A DNA stretch of 64,000 nt from Bacillus sp. SKDU12 (GTDB taxonomy: Bacteria > Bacillota > Bacilli > Bacillales > Bacillaceae), in assembly GCF_010093085.1 (NCBI RefSeq), contig NZ_MSRC01000004.1, positions 1 to 64,000 of the forward strand, written 5' to 3'. Shown one piece after another: positions 3,667 to 45,715 of this stretch (positions are counted from its first letter, which is position 1; every line of letters starts with the position of its first letter). Under the pieces are notes generated by a model. It made no database searches, was not told the origin of the DNA, and worked only from the letters and a program-made list of their open reading frames with translations. Made by a program: the position numbers and the translations under genes.

Positions 3667-4476
3667 ATGAACGAAGCGATTTTGTCTAGAAATAATGTGA
3701 GAGTGAAGGGCAGCGGCGAAACATCTATCATTTTCGCACCTGGTTTTGGCTGTGACCAAAGCGTCTGGAACGCCGTGGTGCCAGCCTTCGAAGAAGATCA
3801 TCAAGTCATTTTATTTGATTATGTCGGGTCGGGCCATTCAGATTTGCGCGCATATGACCTGAATCGGTATCGGACACTTGACGGCTATGCCCAAGATGTT
3901 ATTGATGTTTGCGAAGCTTTAGATTTGGAAGAAACCGTGTTTGTGGGGCACTCTGTCGGAGCTGTGATCGGGATGCTTGCTTCCATCCGCCGTCCGGATC
4001 TTTTTTCCCGTCTGGTGATGGTCGGACCTTCTCCTTGCTATTTGAATGATCCGCCTGAGTATTACGGAGGATTTGAAGAAGAGCAGCTCCTTGGTTTGCT
4101 TGAAATGATGGAGAAAAATTACATAGGCTGGGCAACTGTATTTGCGGGAACTGTTGTGAACCAGCCAAATCGGCCTGAGATTAAGGAAGAACTTGAAAGC
4201 CGTTTTTGTTCTACTGACCCTGTGATTGCCCAACAATTTGCGAAAGCGGCGTTTTTTTCAGATCATCGGACGGAGCTTTCGAAGGTGACCGTTCCCTCTC
4301 TTATTCTCCAATGTGCCGATGATATGATCGCATCAGCGGCAGTGGGCGAGTATATGCATAAGCATCTTCCTTATAGTACACTGATACATATGGAAGCTCG
4401 CGGGCATTGCCCCCACATGAGCCATCCAAATGAAACGATACATCTAATCGGCGACTATTTAAAAGCATACGTGTGA
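3667..4476 (+). CDS. rsbQ: RsbQ alpha/beta hydrolase, sigma-B energy-stress activator
   Basis: A 269-residue alpha/beta-hydrolase. The nucleophile elbow GHSVG contains Ser96, and the remaining triad members correspond to Asp219 (QCADDM) and His247 (RGHCPH), as known for RsbQ. It is required with the phosphatase RsbP to relay energy stress to the sigma-B partner-switch; it is thought to produce or present a small hydrophobic ligand to the PAS domain of RsbP. The gene has a strong GAAAGGAG ribosome site and lies 34 nt before rsbP. The length and order match the known rsbQP operon. Confidence 0.96.
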
Positions 4477-4510
4477 TCTAGGAACGAAAGGGATAGAGGT
4501 GACCCTCTTA

Positions 4511-5722
4511 ATGGACAAACAATTGATTGATGCACCATGCGGTTTCCTCACCTTGTCAGAAGAGGGTGCGATTCTAGCTGCTAATCGCACCCTTTTCAAG
4601 ATTTTGGATTATGGACCGGAGCAGGTTATCGGCGAGCATCTGAATACGATGTTGACCGTTCCCGCACAGCTTTTCTGCCAGCTTTATTTTTTTCCGCTTT
4701 TGAAACTGGAGCATCATATCGAAGAAATATATATTTCTTTGAAAGCAAGAGACGGCGAAGAAATCCCCGTCCTTGTCAATGCTATTGCGAGAACCGATAG
4801 CGGAGTTTCTGTCTTCGATTGTGTGCTCATTCCGATGCAGAAGAGAAATGAATATGAAAATGAGCTCCTGATAGCGAGAAATGCGGCTCAGGAGGCTTTG
4901 CTCGCCAAACAGAAAGCCAATGCGGAGTTAGAGATTGCCTTGGAAACGCTTAAGGCCAAACAAGAAGAACTGCTTGAGACCAACAAACAAAATCAACAAT
5001 TTAAATCAAATACGAAACGAGAGCTTGAACTCGCCAGAAAGATCCAGAAAAACTCATTGACTGAACCGATTGTAAACGATCAGGTTCAGATTGACGCTTA
5101 TTACAAAGCATCGAGTGAATTGTCGGGTGATCTATACGGGTTTTATCAAATCGATGATCATCGTTATGGCATTATTATTCTTGATGTAATGGGGCACGGG
5201 ATTTCCTCTGCTTTGATTACGATGTCTCTTCACCCTTTGTTTCAGCGCCAGATCACGCAAGGCGCCAGTCCTGTCATAGTCATGAAGGAGTTGGATCGTC
5301 ACCTCCACAGCTTGTTTCAAAATGATGAGGAGGCAAGACATTATTGCACTGCCATTTATCTCGAGATTGATACAGTCCGGCAAAAAATTGATTATGTCAA
5401 TGCAGGGCATCCGCCGGCGTTGTGGCAGGACGGTGACGGAACTCAGCATCCGCTGTACGCTACCTCGCCGCCGATTGGCATGTTTGAAGACACTGTGTTT
5501 CAATCAAACAGCCTTTCATACGAGGAAGGCGGAAGGCTCCTTCTGTATACGGATGGCGTGATGGATCCTACGGCTTCATGTTATTTATTTGATTTATTAA
5601 AAACTCATCCCGATTTGTCTATTGCTGGCCTGAAAGAGAAAATCCTCACATCACTGAACCATCATAAGGAAGCCCATCATCAAAGTGATGATGAATGTTT
5701 TATATTAGTTGATTTGAAATAA
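4511..5722 (+). CDS. rsbP: RsbP PP2C phosphatase with PAS domain
   Basis: A 403-residue energy-stress phosphatase. The PAS domain is at about 1-115 (CGFLTLSEEGAILAANRTLF), a charged coiled coil at about 120-185, and a PP2C-type SpoIIE domain from about 190 to the end with metal-binding acidic motifs (SGDLYG, LDVMGHG, YTDGVMD, DDECF). Family knowledge: it dephosphorylates RsbV to release sigma-B when energy falls. An upstream in-frame GTG at 4499 would add four residues, but it overlaps the AGAGGTGA ribosome site, which is correctly spaced for ATG 4511. Confidence 0.95.
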   Translation: MDKQLIDAPCGFLTLSEEGAILAANRTLFKILDYGPEQVIGEHLNTMLTVPAQLFCQLYFFPLLKLEHHIEEIYISLKARDGEEIPVLVNAIARTDSGVSVFDCVLIPMQKRNEYENELLIARNAAQEALLAKQKANAELEIALETLKAKQEELLETNKQNQQFKSNTKRELELARKIQKNSLTEPIVNDQVQIDAYYKASSELSGDLYGFYQIDDHRYGIIILDVMGHGISSALITMSLHPLFQRQITQGASPVIVMKELDRHLHSLFQNDEEARHYCTAIYLEIDTVRQKIDYVNAGHPPALWQDGDGTQHPLYATSPPIGMFEDTVFQSNSLSYEEGGRLLLYTDGVMDPTASCYLFDLLKTHPDLSIAGLKEKILTSLNHHKEAHHQSDDECFILVDLK

Positions 5723-5917
5723 AATGATCCATGAGATGTGATGCGTCTCATGGATTTTTTGTTTGAGCGTTTCTTCCCTACCACTTACAGGCATTTTATG
5801 GTCATATCCAGCATCCTCCAGCCTACTTATTGCGTTTGCCTGCTTTTGAGCAGAAGGTAGATACGCCCTGAATTGAAGGGACTCAACACAATAACCGCTG
5901 CAAACAACAATTTTCAT
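5705..5917 (-). CDS. Possible small protein (70 aa), unknown
   Basis: A 70-codon frame opening with MKIVVCSGYC, preceded by a strong GAGGAGGG ribosome site about five nt from the ATG. I do not recognise the protein; it is basic with no membrane segment. Its last ~20 codons run through the rsbP terminator hairpin and slightly into the rsbP end, which is odd for a real gene and suggests either an eroded stop codon or a remnant. It fills the short gap where B. subtilis 168 carries the gan operon, as I recall. The ribosome site is the main argument for it. Confidence 0.4.
   Translation of the reverse strand: MKIVVCSGYCVESLQFRAYLPSAQKQANAISRLEDAGYDHKMPVSGREETLKQKIHETHHISWIILFQIN
5728..5760. terminator. 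Terminator after rsbP
   Basis: The arms TCCATGAGA and TCTCATGGA with a 9-nt loop are followed by a T run on the plus strand, six nt after the rsbP stop. On the opposite strand it lies inside the end of the small 5705-5917 reading frame. Confidence 0.85.
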
Positions 5918-6025
5918 GATTCCCTCCTCACTGTATAGTGAAAATTATAGAAAAAAGACTGAACCATTTGCGGCTCAGTCTCAGTTATTCTATTCTGCGG
6001 CGAAATTGCCCGGGAAATGAGTTGG

Positions 6026-6748
6026 TTATTGCACATTTTCCTCGAAATATCTCGAAAGCACATCTTCCACATTTGTTAAATGCGCCAGCATGGCGGCTTC
6101 TGCCTGTGCTCCATCCCTTGCTGCCACTGCCTTGTAAATCCGTTCATGCTCATCGTACAATCGCTGAATGGAGGTCTTCTTGGAAAACAGCCAGATTTTC
6201 CGTGTTTCTCTCATCGTTTCCAGCAGTAATGATGATACGTGGTTCATCAAGTGTTTAAGAAGCTCATTTTGAGAAGCATCAGCCAGTGCCAGATGAAATG
6301 CGAAGTCTGCTTTCTCGCCCAGCTCCCCGTCCGCATCAATGCTGCCCATTTCCTTTAACGCAGCATGAATTCTTTCGAGATTTTCTTCTGTTCTTTTTTC
6401 AGCAGCTAATGACGCCACACCGATTTCAAGCAGTTTTCTGACCTCGAGCAGCTGTTTAACGTCCTCTTTTTTCATGAGAAGGGCGGCTGAGAGCGGCTGA
6501 GAAATTTGATCAAGCTCAAATTCCTTCAGGTATGTGCCTTCTCCTTGTTTCATTTCGACAAGCCCCATCGCTTTTAGTGCAGAAAGTGCTTCACGAACTG
6601 CTGAGCGGCTGACTTGAAAGCTTTCGGAAAGCGCCTGAACTGAGTCCAGTTTATCTCCCGGCTTCAAATCGCCGTTTTTGATCATATCTAATAGCGCATC
6701 CGCCACTTCTTCATATATTTTCTTTGTTTTAATCTGTTTGTATTTCAA
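6026..6748 (-). CDS. lutR: GntR/FadR-family lactate regulator LutR
   Basis: A 240-residue regulator. The N-terminal winged helix at about 10-75 carries the GntR signature (SRSAVREALSALKAMGLVE), and the C-terminal all-helical FCD ligand domain at about 85-220 includes the metal-binding type residues around FAFHLALADAS and HERIYKA. LutR is known to repress the lutABC lactate-oxidation operon and lutP and to affect biofilm and antibiotic genes. It is divergent from lutP with a 228-bp control region that holds a match to the LutR motif. Its own likely -10 (TATAAT on the minus strand) is near 6793-6798. Confidence 0.93.
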   Translation of the reverse strand: MKYKQIKTKKIYEEVADALLDMIKNGDLKPGDKLDSVQALSESFQVSRSAVREALSALKAMGLVEMKQGEGTYLKEFELDQISQPLSAALLMKKEDVKQLLEVRKLLEIGVASLAAEKRTEENLERIHAALKEMGSIDADGELGEKADFAFHLALADASQNELLKHLMNHVSSLLLETMRETRKIWLFSKKTSIQRLYDEHERIYKAVAARDGAQAEAAMLAHLTNVEDVLSRYFEENVQ

Positions 6749-40133: not shown

Positions 40134-40230
40134 GTTCATCCTCCTTGCAAAATTCAATGTCACACATACCATAACGTGCCCAAGAGGAGGAACAAGTATG
40201 TTCCGTTGAGAAAGATTTTTGAAATAAAAC

Positions 40231-40275
40231 AAAAAAAGACAAGAGCGGCATAATGCCAAACCCTTGTCTTTTCTG
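40231..40275. terminator. Terminator-like hairpin beside the island edge
   Basis: AAAAGACAAG and CTTGTCTTTT arms flanked by A and T tracts. No gene ends right here, so it may belong to a gene that has been lost. Confidence 0.5.
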
Positions 40276-40286
40276 TTGTTGTATCG

Positions 40287-40300
40287 GACGCGTACGGAGG
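40287..40300. other. Possible degenerate attachment core (copy of tRNA-Arg 3' end)
   Basis: GACGCGTACGGAGG matches GACGCGCTCGGAGG (45436-45449, the end of the tRNA-Arg gene) at 12 of 14 positions and in the same direction. It lies at the far edge of the accessory region, where a prophage inserted in the tRNA 3' end would leave its second att copy. A 14-nt match could also be chance. Confidence 0.4.
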
Positions 40301-40352
40301 ACGTATAATATACCTCTCTAAACGTTGATATATAAGTTTTTTTAAGAATACT

Positions 40353-40371
40353 TGTGTGAAATTTGTGTAAA
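40353..40371. other. Integrase arm-site-like motif
   Basis: This 19-nt stretch (TGTGTGAAATTTGTGTAAA) matches the end of the integrase fragment (45286-45304) at 16 of 19 positions, with 11 identical in a row. Arm-type sites repeated at both ends of a prophage would look like this. Confidence 0.4.
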
Positions 40372-40487
40372 TGTTTATGTAACCCCGATTAGCAAGAAAA
40401 TGAAAGAATCCGCCTCTTCCCGAACTAAAAAGAAAGATTGGGAAAAGCAAACAAGAAATACGTGAGTCCACAAAAAGCCTGATCCGA

Positions 40488-40565
40488 AAAGGCTCTCTTT
40501 CATGGGATAAAGAAAAGAAAATATGGATTATATAAAGTCCCTCTCTAATGAGTCGGGACCTTTTT
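40488..40565. repeat. 49-bp repeat plus terminator, upstream copy
   Basis: Positions 40488-40536 match 42735-42783 at 47 of 49 positions. A GTCCC...GGGAC hairpin with a T run (40537-40565) follows. A short open stretch ending 22 nt before the repeat (stop at 40463-40465, KKDWEKQTRNT) may be the tail of an older, lost gene. The whole 40134-40695 gap holds otherwise only the toxin promoter region. Confidence 0.85.
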
Positions 40566-40695
40566 GTTTTACACAACAGGAATAAAGACACAGATCAAAC
40601 GATTCATTTTCATCTAATACAAAGACTTTTCAATTGTTCACCTTTTCCTCGTGGTAAAATTTTGAGTGTGAAATTCCAAAAGAAGGGACATGAAC

Positions 40696-42411
40696 ATGAA
40701 AGTATTTGAAGCCAAATCACTGCTTTCAGAAGCAGATAGACGCGTAAAAGAATACAAGGAATTAAAAAGTCAGATGGTCGATCTAAAAAAGGCTTTTAAA
40801 GCCGTAGCTGATTTAGATGACAGTGAGTTTTCCGGTAAAGGTGCCGACAACATAAAGGCATTCTATGAGGATCAAGCCGGGATCGCTGACCAGTGGATTG
40901 ATTTGATCGAGACAAAAATCACATTTCTCACAAGTATTACTGGCATTTTGGAAGATGCAAGCTTATCCGATGCCTACATAGAAGAATCTTTTTTAGAACA
41001 CGAGCTGGCCAACGCTTATACTAAATCAAAATCCATCATGTCAGAACAGAAAAAAGCAATAAAAGACATTCTAAATGACATCAACGACATACTACCACTA
41101 GATTTATTCTCCACAGAAACTTTTAAAGACGAACTCTCTTCAGCCGACAACAAACGTACCAAGACCATCAAAAAAATTCATGAAGTCGATGAAAATTTAA
41201 CATCTGAATATGCACTCTCAGAAGCAAATGAACAAATGATTCAGGCGGGTTACCAAGCACTCATGAACGCTACAGCAAAAGGTAAAAACGCCTCCCCTAT
41301 CCACTATAATGCAAAAGCTTATAGGGACAGTGAAATTCATAAGATGACCGAGGATGTAAAAAAACAAACTACTGACTATATTTCCTTTAAAGATCAGCAG
41401 GCCGAACAAAGAAGAATTGCGAAGGAACAGGAAGAACTCGCAAATAGACCATGGTATGAAAAGACCTGGGATGTCGTTTGTAATTTTACAGGGGAAGTCT
41501 CTGGCTATTATGATTATAAAAGAGCCGCTGATGGCGTCGATCCAGTCACCGGTGAAAAATTAACTGCTGGGCAACGGGTGGCAGCTGGAGCGATGGCTGC
41601 GGCAGGTTATATCCCGATTGTGGGATGGGCTGGAAAATTAGCAAAAGGCGGAAAAGCTGTTTATTCAACCAGTAAAGCACTCTACACAGCAGACAAAGCA
41701 CTTGATGTCTACAAAACGCCAAAGACATTCCATGCTCTTCAAAACTCCAGTAAAGGACTCTACGGACTTGCCTCAGCGAATGGATTTAGTGAAGCAATAA
41801 CCGGCCGAGATATGTTTGGGAATAAGATTTCTGAGGAGAGACGTGAAAACAGCTTTAATAGCGCTCTAGCTGCTCTCGGTCCTGTAGGAGCAATCGGGAC
41901 GGGAAAATTATTGAAAGCAAGCGCAGGAGCCGGAAAATCCTCAAATCTCTATCGTGGAGATAAAGATTTATATTCCACCAAAGCAGCTAACGGATTAGGA
42001 AAATCACATATTGATCCGGACACCGGAAATCTTGTGCCAATAAATAAAGAAGGAATGTATAAAGGTAGACAAGTCACAGTGACAGAACATATTTTAGGCG
42101 GATTTAGAGGAGCTCAAAAGTCTAATAGTCCGTACACCAGTTTCACGATGAATAAAAATGTAATCATTAATTACGGTGATAGTTCTATTGAATTGAATCT
42201 GCCGGCTTTGCGAAAGGCCATCCAATCAGGAGAAGTAAAAGGAGTAGCTATTTTATCTCCAAAACAAATTGAACGTCTAATAAAGAATGATAAGCATTCA
42301 GATTATTGGAAGAAAAGGGCTCTTAGTTGGACAAAAAGGGATACTGAATATTTAATAAGAGGCGAAATACCAAAAGAGTATTTTAAATTGCATCAAAAGG
42401 AGGGAAAATAA
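40696..42411 (+). CDS. LXG polymorphic toxin with ADP-ribosyltransferase-like tail
   Basis: A 571-residue LXG-type toxin. The LXG domain fills about 1-230 as long helices ([20 protein letters not shown]), a Gly/Ala-rich pre-toxin TG segment lies at about 265-345 ([20 protein letters not shown]), and the C-terminal ~150 residues are the toxin. Three motifs there fit an ADP-ribosyltransferase fold: LYRG (Arg420), SPYTSFT (478-484) and [11 protein letters not shown] (Asp549, Glu551; D-x-E where E-x-E is usual). LXG toxins leave through the type VII (Yuk/ESX) system and attack neighbours. ATG 40696 is chosen for its AAGGGA spacing. Class is inferred by eye. Confidence 0.88.
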
Positions 42412-42693
42412 GTGTTCCTTTACTATAAAGATGAAAAGCTAGGCGAAATTCACGACGTTAGCGGAGAAGGTATGTGGATGTACGGTATACTCAGCCCATA
42501 TGAAAACATCGAGACCTTTCGAGACCTTTTTAATGACCTTATTGACGAAGATGGTGACTTTGATGAAACGAAATACGACGAAGAATGGTTAGAAGATGAA
42601 AATTGGTACATCCTTGACGAGAACAACAGCAAACGAGGAATCATTGTTCCTGCAGTTTACCCTGACGGAGCTATTAACTGGAGATGGACATAA
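42412..42693 (+). CDS. Probable immunity protein for the LXG toxin
   Basis: A 93-residue, very acidic protein (FNDLIDEDGDFDETKYDEEW) that I do not recognise. The GTG start comes immediately after the toxin stop codon, with AAAGGAGGG upstream inside the toxin gene. A small acidic protein directly behind a polymorphic toxin is the usual place and style of an immunity protein that blocks the toxin tail. The role is inferred from position only. Confidence 0.75.
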   Translation: MFLYYKDEKLGEIHDVSGEGMWMYGILSPYENIETFRDLFNDLIDEDGDFDETKYDEEWLEDENWYILDENNSKRGIIVPAVYPDGAINWRWT

Positions 42694-42734
42694 AACAGGG
42701 GTTTTCTCCGTTTTGCGTTATCGCTTTTATCCAC

Positions 42735-42813
42735 AAAGGCGCTCTTTCTTGGGATAAAGAAAAGAAAATATGGATTATATAAAAAGCCCTTCTCATATGA
42801 GTTGGGCTTTTTT
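42735..42813. repeat. 49-bp repeat plus terminator, downstream copy
   Basis: The second copy of the repeat (42735-42783) starts 41 nt after the immunity gene and leads into an AAAGCCC...GGGCTTT terminator. Both copies have the same orientation and the same arrangement with a terminator, so they bracket the toxin-immunity module. Confidence 0.85.
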
Positions 42814-42821
42814 TGAGGCTA

Positions 42822-43145
42822 TTATCTTTCCTCAATAGGATTGTGTTTAGTTGATTTCAACCCTGTTATCACTTTTTTGATGATCTTTAGTATTACATAA
42901 ACCATTAGGACAGCGATTAAATAATTTACAACATTAAACTCTGTCTTTATAAATTCTGTTGGAGTAAATAACAAAAACCTATTTCCTACAAACCCATCAT
43001 AGCTACGATAAATCACAAATTGAATAGGGAAACCGAGAGCATACCCCAATTCTGATACCTTCTCATAGGGTATTACAAAAATCGAAATAAGCGGAACTAG
43101 AAAGCTTATCAAACCTAACTTGTATTTTTTCAATCGGTTTTTCAT
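42822..43145 (-). CDS. Hypothetical small membrane protein
   Basis: A 107-residue protein with two clear transmembrane helices (GLISFLVPLISIFVIPY at about 11-27; VVNYLIAVLMVYVILKIIKK at about 72-91) and a lysine-rich end. A GGGAGTGATT ribosome site lies close to the ATG. I do not recognise the family. It is divergent from the secreted protein at 43305, sharing a 159-bp gap, and faces the toxin module; it could be an immunity protein or phage cargo. Low GC like its neighbours. Confidence 0.7.
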   Translation of the reverse strand: MKNRLKKYKLGLISFLVPLISIFVIPYEKVSELGYALGFPIQFVIYRSYDGFVGNRFLLFTPTEFIKTEFNVVNYLIAVLMVYVILKIIKKVITGLKSTKHNPIEER

Positions 43146-43304
43146 GCAATCACTCCCTTCCCCTTATATGTTATCCGGCAATTATAACATATCCAAATAA
43201 ATAAATTTATTGAAAAATATAAATATTTTGGTTTTTTATGGATTTCAGGACTTTCATATGTTTTAATTAGTTTGTAAGAACTAAATTGAATGGAGGTTGA
43301 AAGT

Positions 43305-43952
43305 ATGAAAAGGATTTTAGTCTTAGTCATTGCCCTTGGCTTGGCTTTGGTTCCTTTTGCTTCAGCCAACGCAGAATCCACAACAAAAGAGATTGCTGAA
43401 ACAAAGAACCAAGTGGTAGAGTTACAAAAGGACCTTGGTTTTGAATTAGTGGATGTCTCAAGTGAAGAATTTTCAAGTGTATCTAAAAAGGATTTTTTGA
43501 AGTTTGACTCAGTTCAGGATTTTAAAGAGTTTATTAAAGATGCTCAACAACCACAAAAATTTGAAGAGACCATTAATGTTAGTGAAGATACTCCACTAAT
43601 AAAACCACAAGTGAGTGACTCACATGTTATCAATTGGTGGGCCCCTTTTACAGGTTGGGGTATGACAGGGGTGGCTTGCTGGAAAAATATCGCGTTTAAT
43701 TACCAATATAAATTTGTAAATAAGAAGCCTCAGTTCACCAAAGTGTCGGGTATTGACTCTTATGTTACTGGCATTAACGTAGCTTGGTGGAAACAAACTG
43801 GACAGAGCTATAACATTACTAAAACCAAAACAACTAATGATACTGCAAAAATTAAGGTTGTAGGAGCTATGGTTCTTGGTATTGACATTAAAGGATTTAC
43901 GATTGGAGCTAAAATCGGACAAACTTGGAATGGCAGTTTGCGTTTATATTAA
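43305..43952 (+). CDS. Hypothetical secreted protein
   Basis: A 215-residue protein with a classic signal peptide (RILVLVIALGLALVPFASANA, cut near residue 23). The mature part has an acidic helical section (about 25-90) and then an aromatic, Gly-rich beta-like section with many Trp residues (NWWAPFTGWGMTG, AWWKQTG, IGQTWNGSL). I do not recognise it. ATG 43305 is chosen because GGAGGTTG lies upstream, overlapping the earlier ATG 43290. It might be a secreted antimicrobial or phage-cargo protein; nothing shows which. Confidence 0.8.
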   Translation: MKRILVLVIALGLALVPFASANAESTTKEIAETKNQVVELQKDLGFELVDVSSEEFSSVSKKDFLKFDSVQDFKEFIKDAQQPQKFEETINVSEDTPLIKPQVSDSHVINWWAPFTGWGMTGVACWKNIAFNYQYKFVNKKPQFTKVSGIDSYVTGINVAWWKQTGQSYNITKTKTTNDTAKIKVVGAMVLGIDIKGFTIGAKIGQTWNGSLRLY

Positions 43953-44051: not shown

Positions 44052-44777
44052 TTATTTCAATTTCTCCTCAATTTTCGCTTTAGTCTTCGGTCCATAAATG
44101 CCGTCAGCAGTCAGGCCATTTACTGACTGGAATCGTTTGACCGCATTTGCTGTTTTCCATCCATACACGCCGTCGATGCCGTTATTCTTCGCTCCTTTGT
44201 CCGGGTAGAAATAAAGAGCAGCCAGAGCATTTTGAATCTGCCTTACGTCATCCCCTTTTCGCATAGGACTTGTTGCTTTATAGATGCCAGAAGGCAGCGC
44301 ATAGGACGTTTTTTGGCTACTTGGTTTAGGGCTTGAAGTGCTCGAACCTGTGAGCTTTAATACTTGGCCGACCTTGATCAAGTTCGGGTTTTTGATATCG
44401 TTCAAGCTTTGCAGGGTTGCTACACTCATCCCATGCTCTTTTGCAATTGTGGAAAGAGTATCTCCTTTTTTTACTGTGTAAGTGCCCCACAAGCTTTAGG
44501 CGCAGACGATGACGGTTTAGAAGATGTTTTTCCCGCCCAGCGCCTTCAATTGTTTTTCAATGGCGGTCTTAACCTCATCCCATCTACCCTCTGACAAAAT
44601 ACGGTGAGAACAGTATTTCCCGTTCCAGTCTTGATGTTTACGAACTTGATCAACACCCCAGCCGCGTTCTTTAAGCAGCTGCGCCACAAATTTGATTGCC
44701 AGCTTTTCTGCCGCCTTATATTTAGCGCCTCCTGACTTGCTGTAACAGATTTCAACACCGATAGATTTACGGTTCCC
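44052..44777 (-). pseudogene. Truncated, frameshifted phage N-acetylmuramoyl-L-alanine amidase
   Basis: Read on the minus strand, an amidase_2 fragment (GNRKSIGVEICYSKSGGAKY ... RKHQDWNGKYCSHRI) of the XlyA/XlyB/CwlA type starts abruptly near 44777 without its first ~90 codons. A LysM domain ([20 protein letters not shown]) and a peptidoglycan-binding domain follow to the stop at 44052. Two opposite frameshifts in the linker (near 44528 in an A run, and near 44490) put two stops between the halves. It cannot make a full enzyme. Its upstream end meets the integrase fragment directly. Confidence 0.85.
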
Positions 44778-45302
44778 TTAACTAAAGACGATTTTAATTT
44801 CGATTCGAATGAAATCACAATCAACAAAACATGGGACTATAAAACAGGAAAAGGATTTACTTCTACAAAAAATGATCCTTCAAACAGGGTAATTAAAATG
44901 GATTCCAAAACAATGAGCCTGTTCGAAAATTTATTTGAAAGAATACCTTATCATAAGGAAGGCCTTATTTTTGTCAGTCCCAATAACTCAAGGAAATTTC
45001 TTACAAACGAATTTGTTAATAAAATATTGCGCAAAACGTTGAACGACTTAGAAATTGAACCTGTAACGATTCATGGTTTAAGACATACCCACGCCAGCAT
45101 ACTTCTTTACAAGAAAATATCCATTTATTATGTATCAGAACGGTTAGGACATGCTGGGATTGATACGACTCTTAAATATTATGCACATGTGGTGAAAGAG
45201 CTTCGAGAAGAAGATACACAAAACACACTCGAATTGTTTCAACAAATGCTCTCTCTTGAAAAAAACAAGCGTGTAAAAAAACCGTGTGCAAGATTTGTGT
45301 AA
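44778..45302 (+). pseudogene. Truncated tyrosine-recombinase (phage/ICE integrase)
   Basis: About 174 C-terminal codons of a phage integrase remain. The frame begins LTKDDFNFDSNEITINKTWD without a start, and goes on through HGLRHTHAS (His, Arg), LGHAGIDTT and the catalytic Tyr in LKYYAHV. The N-terminal DNA-binding domains and the first catalytic Arg are missing, so it is inactive. An ATG at 44898 gives an apparent 134-residue protein. It points toward tRNA-Arg, its likely former target, and abuts the truncated amidase at its 5' side. Confidence 0.85.
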
Positions 45303-45365
45303 AACAATGAAATAGTAACTTTTTTATCGCTTTCTCAGGCTCCCAATAAATCCATCAAAACAAAG

Positions 45366-45391
45366 AAAAACCCTTGCTCAGCAAGGGTTTT
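45366..45391. terminator. Bidirectional terminator between integrase remnant and tRNA
   Basis: AAAACCCTTGC and GCAAGGGTTTT arms around TCA, with T tracts on both strands. It probably ends the tRNA-Arg transcript on the minus strand. Confidence 0.8.
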
Positions 45392-45437
45392 CAACTTCTT
45401 TAGGGTTTATTAATCTAAACCTATCTAATGCTCATGA

Positions 45438-45513
45438 CGCGCTCGGAGGGATTCGAACCCCCGACAGACGTGGTACCGGAAACCACCGCTCTATCCAACT
45501 GAGCTACGAGCGC
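45438..45513 (-). tRNA. trnQ-Arg: tRNA-Arg (anticodon CCG)
   Basis: On the minus strand a full cloverleaf can be drawn: acceptor GCGCTCG/CGAGCGC, D stem GCTC/GAGC, anticodon stem GTGGT/ACCAC with loop TTCCGGT (anticodon CCG, Arg), and T arm with TTCGAAT. CCA is not encoded. The position next to clpP fits the B. subtilis trnQ-Arg gene. Its 3' end faces the accessory region and is its likely insertion site. Confidence 0.93.
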
Positions 45514-45715
45514 ATATTCACTGTGTTATAAGAACGTCAGCACAAATCATTATACGATAATTCCATTCAAATAACAACCCTCTATTTCAAGAGCAACCTT
45601 TTTAAAAACAGATACATCATCTGATTTGGCAATCTGGCATATGATGGTTTGAACCTCTGTATTTTTGGGGAAAATGGGAAAAAGAGACGACTTTGCATAT
45701 CCAGCCAGCTTTTTG

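What the first reader, a model, noticed from the sequence alone, without database searches (positions are those of the whole stretch)
40696..42693. LXG toxin with an ADP-ribosyltransferase-like tail and an unrecognised immunity protein
Seen: LXG-type helical N-terminus, Gly/Ala pre-toxin segment, and a ~150-residue tail with LYRG, SPYTSFT and [11 protein letters not shown] in the order R-S-E expected of ADP-ribosyltransferases. The last motif has D-x-E instead of E-x-E, so the enzyme may be a variant. A 93-residue acidic protein starts directly after the stop. Known: LXG toxins leave by the type VII secretion system and have a cognate immunity gene downstream. Inferred: the tail modifies a target in rival cells and the small acidic protein blocks it.
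Basis: partly seen in the sequence, partly recalled or inferred. Interest (0 to 1): 0.75.

Follow-up and report, generated by a model that had tools for sequence, protein, structure and literature searches.

The report
Bacterial toxin with matching antidote protein
This is a gene pair by which a Bacillus probably poisons competing bacteria and protects itself; the poison part belongs to a toxin family of unnamed function that turns up behind several unrelated export modules, and it may be an enzyme that uses NAD, though its fold could not be confirmed.

Summary
Window 40696-42411 encodes a 571-aa polymorphic toxin: LXG domain (Pfam E 8.5e-56), pre-toxin PT-TG domain (2.8e-24), and a 157-aa tail with LYRG, SPYTSFT and [13 protein letters not shown] 93-aa acidic protein (pI 4.05) starts directly after the stop. 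Toxin-immunity logic is well supported. All 16 loci of one genome scan carry the tail (three broken or truncated) with the same small protein; the tail sits behind LXG, WXG100 and other N-termini; both parts are under purifying selection; the genome has an EssC secretion ATPase. The pair lies in a decayed prophage beside tRNA-Arg. Distant relatives, including a CdiA tail on an Acinetobacter plasmid, keep R, S and D-x-E (invariant in 19 aligned rows, down to 32% identity) but are followed by another kind of small protein. The ADP-ribosyltransferase reading is plausible, not shown: no ART family matched, a moderate AlphaFold2 model (pLDDT 72.7) found no fold match, and H51 and Y79 are invariant too. 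Families touched are of unknown function: Pfam DUF7587 (weakly) and PHROGs 17521, 24213 (tail) and 22385 (immunity). Novelty: an unexplained toxin domain with invariant D-x-E inside a well-known kind of system.

The parts
40696..42411 (+). LXG polymorphic toxin, 571 aa (frame opens at 40690)
   Evidence: PHROGs 17521 over residues 1-534, 5.4e-292, unknown function; start chosen by eye from the ribosome-binding site
40699..41298 (+). LXG domain (type VIIb secretion targeting)
   Evidence: PF04740, 193.2 bits; 8.5e-56
41458..41655 (+). PT-TG pre-toxin domain
   Evidence: PF14449, 2.8e-24, residues 257-322 of 573
41938..42408 (+). toxin tail, 157 aa, basic (pI 9.7); no family of known function
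41953..41955 (+). invariant Arg (R420, LYRG motif)
   Evidence: 19 of 19 rows of A7
42139..42141 (+). invariant Ser (S482, SPYTSFT motif)
   Evidence: 19 of 19 rows of A7
42340..42348 (+). invariant Asp-x-Glu (D549, E551)
   Evidence: 19 of 19 rows of A7; outside A7 one 5'-truncated copy, L049, has Val for the Glu
42397..42404 (+). AAGGAGGG ribosome-binding site of the immunity gene, inside the toxin's last codons
   Evidence: read from the sequence
42412..42693 (+). immunity protein, 93 aa, acidic (pI 4.05), GTG start
   Evidence: no Pfam or NCBIfam family; PHROGs 22385, unknown function, 3.9e-27; directly downstream in 16 of 16 genome-scan loci; model pLDDT 93.7
40482..40549 (+). 68-nt direct repeat, upstream copy
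   Evidence: further copies beside two other LXG genes of this genome
42729..42796 (+). 68-nt direct repeat, downstream copy (85%)

Best explanation
A prophage-derived toxin-immunity pair for killing related bacteria. The LXG domain, with helper proteins probably encoded elsewhere, takes the toxin out through the type VIIb secretion system. The tail then acts in a neighbouring cell, most likely as a small NAD-using enzyme of the ADP-ribosyltransferase superfamily with Arg-Ser-(Asp-x-Glu) as active site, either moving ADP-ribose onto a target or splitting NAD. The acidic 93-aa protein, probably made from a coupled cistron, binds the basic tail and blocks it in the producer and its kin. Shown: architecture, co-conservation, cassette exchange, purifying selection, secretion ATPase in the genome, invariance of the four motif residues. 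Inferred: export, toxicity, NAD chemistry, target, and how the immunity protein works.
For: LXG and PT-TG domains. One EssC (1829.8 bits, cut-off 778.4) in the genome, and 15 LXG matches, some being pieces of one gene. The tail occurs with LXG, WXG100 (L114: 4.7e-14) and other N-termini. An own-genome LXG paralogue on C6 shares 77% of the LXG region and 23% of the tail; for one on C8, whose frame is split, only the first piece was compared: 77% and almost no alignable tail. The immunity gene lies beside the tail in 16 of 16 genome-scan loci; the 11 tail-bearing genomes among 44 of the genus all have it, as a fragment in G031. dN/dS 0.02-0.15 where measurable. R6, S68, D135 and E137 are among the 18 invariant positions of 157 in A7, 19 rows, 32-82% identity to the window. 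In the model S68 lies in a strand and E137 starts one.
Against: No ART family matched by sequence. hhalign to phage T4 ModA, ModB and Alt gave nothing, though the known pair ModA-Alt failed in the same test, so it is uninformative. The tail model is moderate (pLDDT 72.7; residues 1-6, holding the Arg, below 50) and found no fold match. No aromatic at ARTT position 3 in any of the 19 rows; Asp, not Glu/Gln, at position 6. H51, Y79, K22 and R134 are equally invariant, so other active sites are possible. No Lap partner was recognised among the neighbouring ORFs scanned.
Confidence: 0.6

Rival explanations
1. The tail has an ART-like fold but is an NAD(P) glycohydrolase: it destroys the NAD pool instead of modifying a target, as reported for the Tne5 toxins, which also occur behind LXG domains. 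(This is a special case of the best explanation, so the odds overlap.)
For: PMC13285283 (abstract and Results read) reports an ART-fold Rhs toxin that hydrolyses NAD, and Tne5 domains in LXG proteins. The strings D-X-E and DxE, searched for in one ART paper each, do not occur there.
Against: Tne5's important residue is a lysine, and its glutamate mutant had little effect, whereas here R, S and D-x-E are invariant. Sequence relation to Tne5 was not tested.
Confidence: 0.22
2. The tail is not an ART but a metal-independent RNase or another toxin, with His51, Arg6, Arg134 and the acidic pair as catalytic residues.
For: H51, K22, R134, D135 and E137 are invariant in 19 of 19 rows; no ART match by sequence or fold; in one survey 18 of 31 B. 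subtilis LXG groups and subgroups had a known toxin motif, 14 of them nuclease motifs (PMC8321402, section 6 read).
Against: The order and context of LYRG, SPYTSFT and DxE-hhhxGxIP, and the strands around S68 and E137, are as in R-S-E enzymes as I recall them; no nuclease toxin family matched (the CdiA tail has a chance-level RdgC hit, 0.067).
Confidence: 0.25
3. An ART of the H-Y-E class, using H51, Y79 and E137.
For: All three are invariant in A7 and in the right order.
Against: In the model H51 lies in a helix (48-53) of low confidence, not on a first strand; R6 and S68 would then be conserved for another reason.
Confidence: 0.08
4. A decaying prophage relic without present function.
For: The nearby integrase and endolysin genes are fragments; broken copies of the toxin exist in relatives.
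Against: Both frames of the pair are intact here, with dN/dS 0.10 (tail) and 0.11 (immunity) against the 97%-identical prophage copy L023.
Confidence: 0.05

Closest known systems
LXG toxin-antitoxin pairs of Bacillus subtilis (PMC8321402)
   Same: LXG N-terminus, variable C-terminal toxin, antitoxin gene directly downstream, several on prophages. The survey includes strain TU-B-10, whose genome holds two copies of this tail-immunity pair (L035, L036).
   Different: I saw no toxin class named for this tail in the passages and section read; the supplementary table could not be read.
PHROGs 17521 and 24213 (phage proteins) and 22385
   Same: 17521 covers toxin residues 1-534 (5.4e-292) and 22385 the whole immunity protein (3.9e-27); the tails of 15 of 15 A2 members match 17521 and 24213.
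   Different: All three are listed as unknown function; the distant tails L121 and L130 and their downstream proteins match none of them at E<=0.01.
Tox-ART-RSE polymorphic toxins (PMC3482391)
   Same: R, S, E order; listed for Firmicutes and for LXG/T7SS proteins.
   Different: Listed motif RxDxR, S, [DN]xN, E. Here R-x-[DE] in 19 of 19 rows, D-x-E at the end; no profile match; the 93-aa protein matches no Pfam family at E<=1, so neither listed immunity type is seen.
Pfam DUF7587 (PF24494)
   Same: The only Pfam family shared by most members: 14 of 15 A2 members at E<=10, one (L044) over the cut-off at 1.5e-6; weak hits also for the CdiA tail (0.002) and L121 (0.0025).
   Different: The window's own tail is far below the cut-off (15.9 of 27 bits); function unknown; no paper in the library names it.
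Tne5 NAD(P) glycohydrolase toxins (PMC13285283)
   Same: Small ART-fold tail of polymorphic toxins, including LXG proteins, with a downstream immunity gene.
   Different: Lys and Glu examined as site residues; sequence relation not tested.

Membership tests
LXG polymorphic toxin of type VIIb secretion | N-terminal LXG domain | tested here: met
   PF04740 8.5e-56
LXG polymorphic toxin of type VIIb secretion | variable C-terminal toxin exchanged between N-termini | tested here: met
LXG polymorphic toxin of type VIIb secretion | cognate immunity gene directly downstream | tested here: met
   by position and co-conservation, 16 of 16 loci; neutralisation not tested
LXG polymorphic toxin of type VIIb secretion | type VIIb apparatus in the genome | tested here: met
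   EssC 1829.8 bits over cut-off 778.4; other components not searched
LXG polymorphic toxin of type VIIb secretion | adjacent Lap partner genes | tested here: inconclusive
   nearest scanned neighbours are two small multidrug transporters, DUF3231 and two ORFs without convincing Pfam family; short ORFs at 40160-40709 and Lap genes elsewhere were not scanned; PMC9600955 (passages) notes that operon layouts vary
R-S-E class ADP-ribosyltransferase | conserved R, S, E in order | tested here: met
   invariant in 19 of 19 rows
R-S-E class ADP-ribosyltransferase | E/Q two before the catalytic E | tested here: not met
   Asp in 19 of 19 rows; consensus from passages of PMC7827354
R-S-E class ADP-ribosyltransferase | aromatic at ARTT position 3 | tested here: not met
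   Thr in 18 rows, Ala in L130; a Trp stands at position 2 in 16 of 19 rows, not in L119, L121, L130
R-S-E class ADP-ribosyltransferase | ART fold | tested here: inconclusive
   pLDDT 72.7; no Foldseek match with E<=0.001
R-S-E class ADP-ribosyltransferase | match to an ART family profile | tested here: not met
R-S-E class ADP-ribosyltransferase | NAD-dependent transfer | not testable with these tools
   needs an assay
Tne5 NAD(P) glycohydrolase | homology to the Pluralibacter toxin tail | not tested
   sequence not at hand
Pfam DUF7587 | score over the Pfam cut-off | tested here: not met
   window tail 15.9 bits of 27; relative L044 28.9

The most novel reading that the evidence does not exclude
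The tail defines a separate ART toxin clade in which an invariant Asp replaces the acceptor-choosing Glu/Gln. The same catalytic domain is shared by Gram-positive type VII toxins and Gram-negative CdiA proteins, is neutralised by two unrelated immunity families, and modifies an acceptor not yet described.
Probability: 0.3. Interest if true: 0.6.

Novelty: new variant of a known kind. Interest (0 to 1): 0.4.

Why it matters
LXG toxins are a well-known weapon, but the enzyme parts reported in the Bacillus surveys I saw are mostly nucleases. A tail family shared by type VII and CdiA toxins, with an invariant and unusual D-x-E and apparently two unrelated antidotes, would make target choice by ART-like toxins testable and give an immunity protein of unknown fold to solve.

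Tried and rejected
Sequence search of the PDB with the whole toxin at E<=1 (nothing) and with profiles A2 and A6 at E<=10: no ART; chance-level hits were calmodulin, Lem3 and a sliding clamp. Foldseek of the tail against PDB: nothing with E<=0.001; two pertussis S1 chains at ranks 2 and 22 (E 0.2 and 0.76, TM about 0.2) are not evidence. BFVD: nothing with E<=0.001. Foldseek of the immunity model (pLDDT 93.7): best E 0.44. hhalign of A7 against 47 phage T4 proteins: ModA, ModB and Alt did not stand out; the positive control ModA-ModB worked (96.7%), ModA-Alt failed, so no conclusion. PF24494 in 398 genomes of the phylum: none, and no control genome rang. PF03496 in 44 genus genomes: none, nor in controls. 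Phages: no match with the window tail or the L121 tail; the L041 tail at E<=10 gave five chance-level records. The L121 tail in viral contigs: seven pattern matches, no relative. One of the six class genomes that rang with A5 (G1036, 1.5e-4) appears to be a recombinase and I count it as chance; the partial hit L096 (G691, 6e-21) was not examined. Terminator and promoter scan: no more than chance.

Full report
What is there. The frame 40690-42411 encodes a toxin with an LXG domain (PF04740, E 8.5e-56), a pre-toxin PT-TG domain (PF14449, 2.8e-24) and a 157-aa tail that passes no Pfam or NCBIfam cut-off. The 93-aa ORF starts with GTG right after the stop, behind AAGGAGGG; tail pI is 9.7, small protein pI 4.05. 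PHROGs holds the toxin as family 17521 (residues 1-534, 5.4e-292) and the small protein as family 22385 (3.9e-27), both of unknown function, so the pair is known as phage proteins, not as an explained toxin.

Setting. The genome (26 contigs, 3.46 Mb) has an EssC ATPase and 15 LXG matches, some of them pieces of one gene. The pair lies in a decayed prophage: an endolysin remnant with LysM and peptidoglycan-binding domains (44052-44492, minus), an integrase fragment (44898-45302) and a tRNA-Arg (45436-45514) stand between it and clpP. A viral contig, L023, has the same block (toxin tail 97% identical, immunity, 107-aa ORF, 220-aa ORF, then a longer lysin-like gene and holin-like genes, the last two named by eye). 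A 68-nt direct repeat flanks the pair and recurs at three other places of the genome, two of them just upstream of other LXG genes.

Cassette. An own-genome LXG paralogue on contig C6 matches 77% over the LXG region and 23% over the tail; a second on C8, split into two frames and compared over its first piece only, matches 77% and has almost no tail to align. Relatives keep the tail at 65-97% while the LXG part falls to 44-58% (L031, L037, L038) or is replaced by WXG100 (L114, 4.7e-14; L041, 1.3e-4, below its cut-off). The tail was found in 11 of 44 genus genomes, 1 of 398 phylum genomes, the window's own, 12 of 397 order genomes by profile at E<=0.1, five of them weak (0.007-0.064), 6 of 329 class genomes at E<=0.01, one of which looks like a chance match in a recombinase, 4 of 42 in the order of G972, and 3 plasmid records, one covering 41% of the query.

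Immunity. In the 16 loci of the genome scan the small protein follows in 16, including three with a broken or truncated toxin frame (L046, L048, L049). In the genus, 14 of 44 genomes match its profile: the 11 tail-bearing ones (in G031 both genes are fragments) and three that hold only stretches of 23, 34 and 63 residues. Its model is confident (pLDDT 93.7) but found no PDB match with E<=0.001. Eight pairs were examined for dN/dS: tail 0.02-0.12 (dS saturated in three), immunity 0.06-0.15 (saturated in one, and dS 3.07 in another, close to it).

Distant relatives. L119/L120 (fused to a PrsW protease domain, 2.3e-12, in L119) and L121 have tails at 32-40% identity, followed by homologous 255-258-aa proteins. 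A 'hemagglutinin repeat' protein, which I read as CdiA-type, on an Acinetobacter towneri plasmid (L130) ends in a tail that matches the window's at E 2e-14, 29% in a two-sequence comparison. In tblastn the L121 tail finds both this plasmid tail and the LXG tails of a Cytobacillus and a Bacillus plasmid, and the L130 tail finds the Cytobacillus one (4e-9). L130 is followed by a 206-aa protein related to that of L121 (E 2e-7). The window's immunity protein shows no significant similarity to either (E 0.076 and none). So one toxin family appears to have two unrelated immunity families.

Active site. In alignment A7 (19 rows; near-duplicates and the broken copies left out) 18 positions are invariant: R6, K22, G30, L32, G39, H51, P65, S68, Y79, G80, L91, I95, G98, R134, D135, E137, G142, P145. 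Among the copies left out, L018/L022, L019, L046 and L048 keep D-x-E, L033 ends before it, and L049, cut at its 5' end, has Val for the Glu. H51 and Y79 mean that invariance alone does not choose R-S-E over H-Y-E or a nuclease.

Is it an ART? For: motif order, R-x-[DE] in 19 of 19 rows, the S and E on strands in the model, and the DxE-hhhxGxIP context, which I recall from R-S-E enzymes. Against: no family, PDB-sequence or fold match; the ARTT loop lacks the aromatic at position 3 and E/Q at position 6 (PMC7827354, passages). Families touched are Pfam DUF7587 (named in no paper of the library) and PHROGs 17521 and 24213 (15 of 15 A2 tails), all of unknown function.

Literature. PMC3482391 (passages and section 32) lists Tox-ART-RSE for LXG proteins and Firmicutes, so an ART behind LXG is not new as an idea. 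PMC8321402 (passages and section 6) catalogued LXG pairs in strains including TU-B-10; its supplement was not read. PMC13285283 (abstract and Results) shows an ART fold that is an NADase. PMC13324451 (passages) says that ARTs with altered triads exist. PMC11942605 (passages) reports nucleases for the seven LXG toxins of one B. velezensis strain. PMC11217815, PMC9600955, PMC7764402 and PMC5576092 were seen as passages. The listings showed no paper that I could recognise as describing this tail; only titles and abstract starts were seen for most, and the library holds only openly licensed papers.

Noticed in passing
window 40482-40549 and 42729-42796: 68-nt direct repeat (85%) flanking the pair; further copies at G000:C8:173404, C8:170050 and C6:39238, the first and last just upstream of other LXG genes: possible substrate for cassette exchange.
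   Followed up: partly
window 43290-43952 (+) and 42822-43145 (-): A 220-aa secreted-looking ORF and a 107-aa membrane-like ORF (by eye) that stay beside the pair in prophage contig L023; no convincing family.
   Followed up: partly
window 44052-45514: Prophage remnant (LysM endolysin remnant, integrase fragment) at tRNA-Arg(CCG) next to clpP.
   Followed up: partly
L119 1390-3402 (-): PrsW-type membrane protease domain fused to a distant version of the toxin tail.
   Followed up: partly
L130 1-4116: CdiA-type protein on an Acinetobacter towneri plasmid ends in the same tail family, with R, S and D-x-E kept, followed by a different small protein.
   Followed up: yes
L080 4051-7455: The same repeat flanks another gene (797-aa ORF at 4194-6587, minus; RCC1-like repeats by eye) beside an LXG gene.
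   Followed up: no
L018/L022 and L049: Broken or truncated toxin copies with an intact immunity gene directly downstream, as expected if immunity outlives its toxin.
   Followed up: partly
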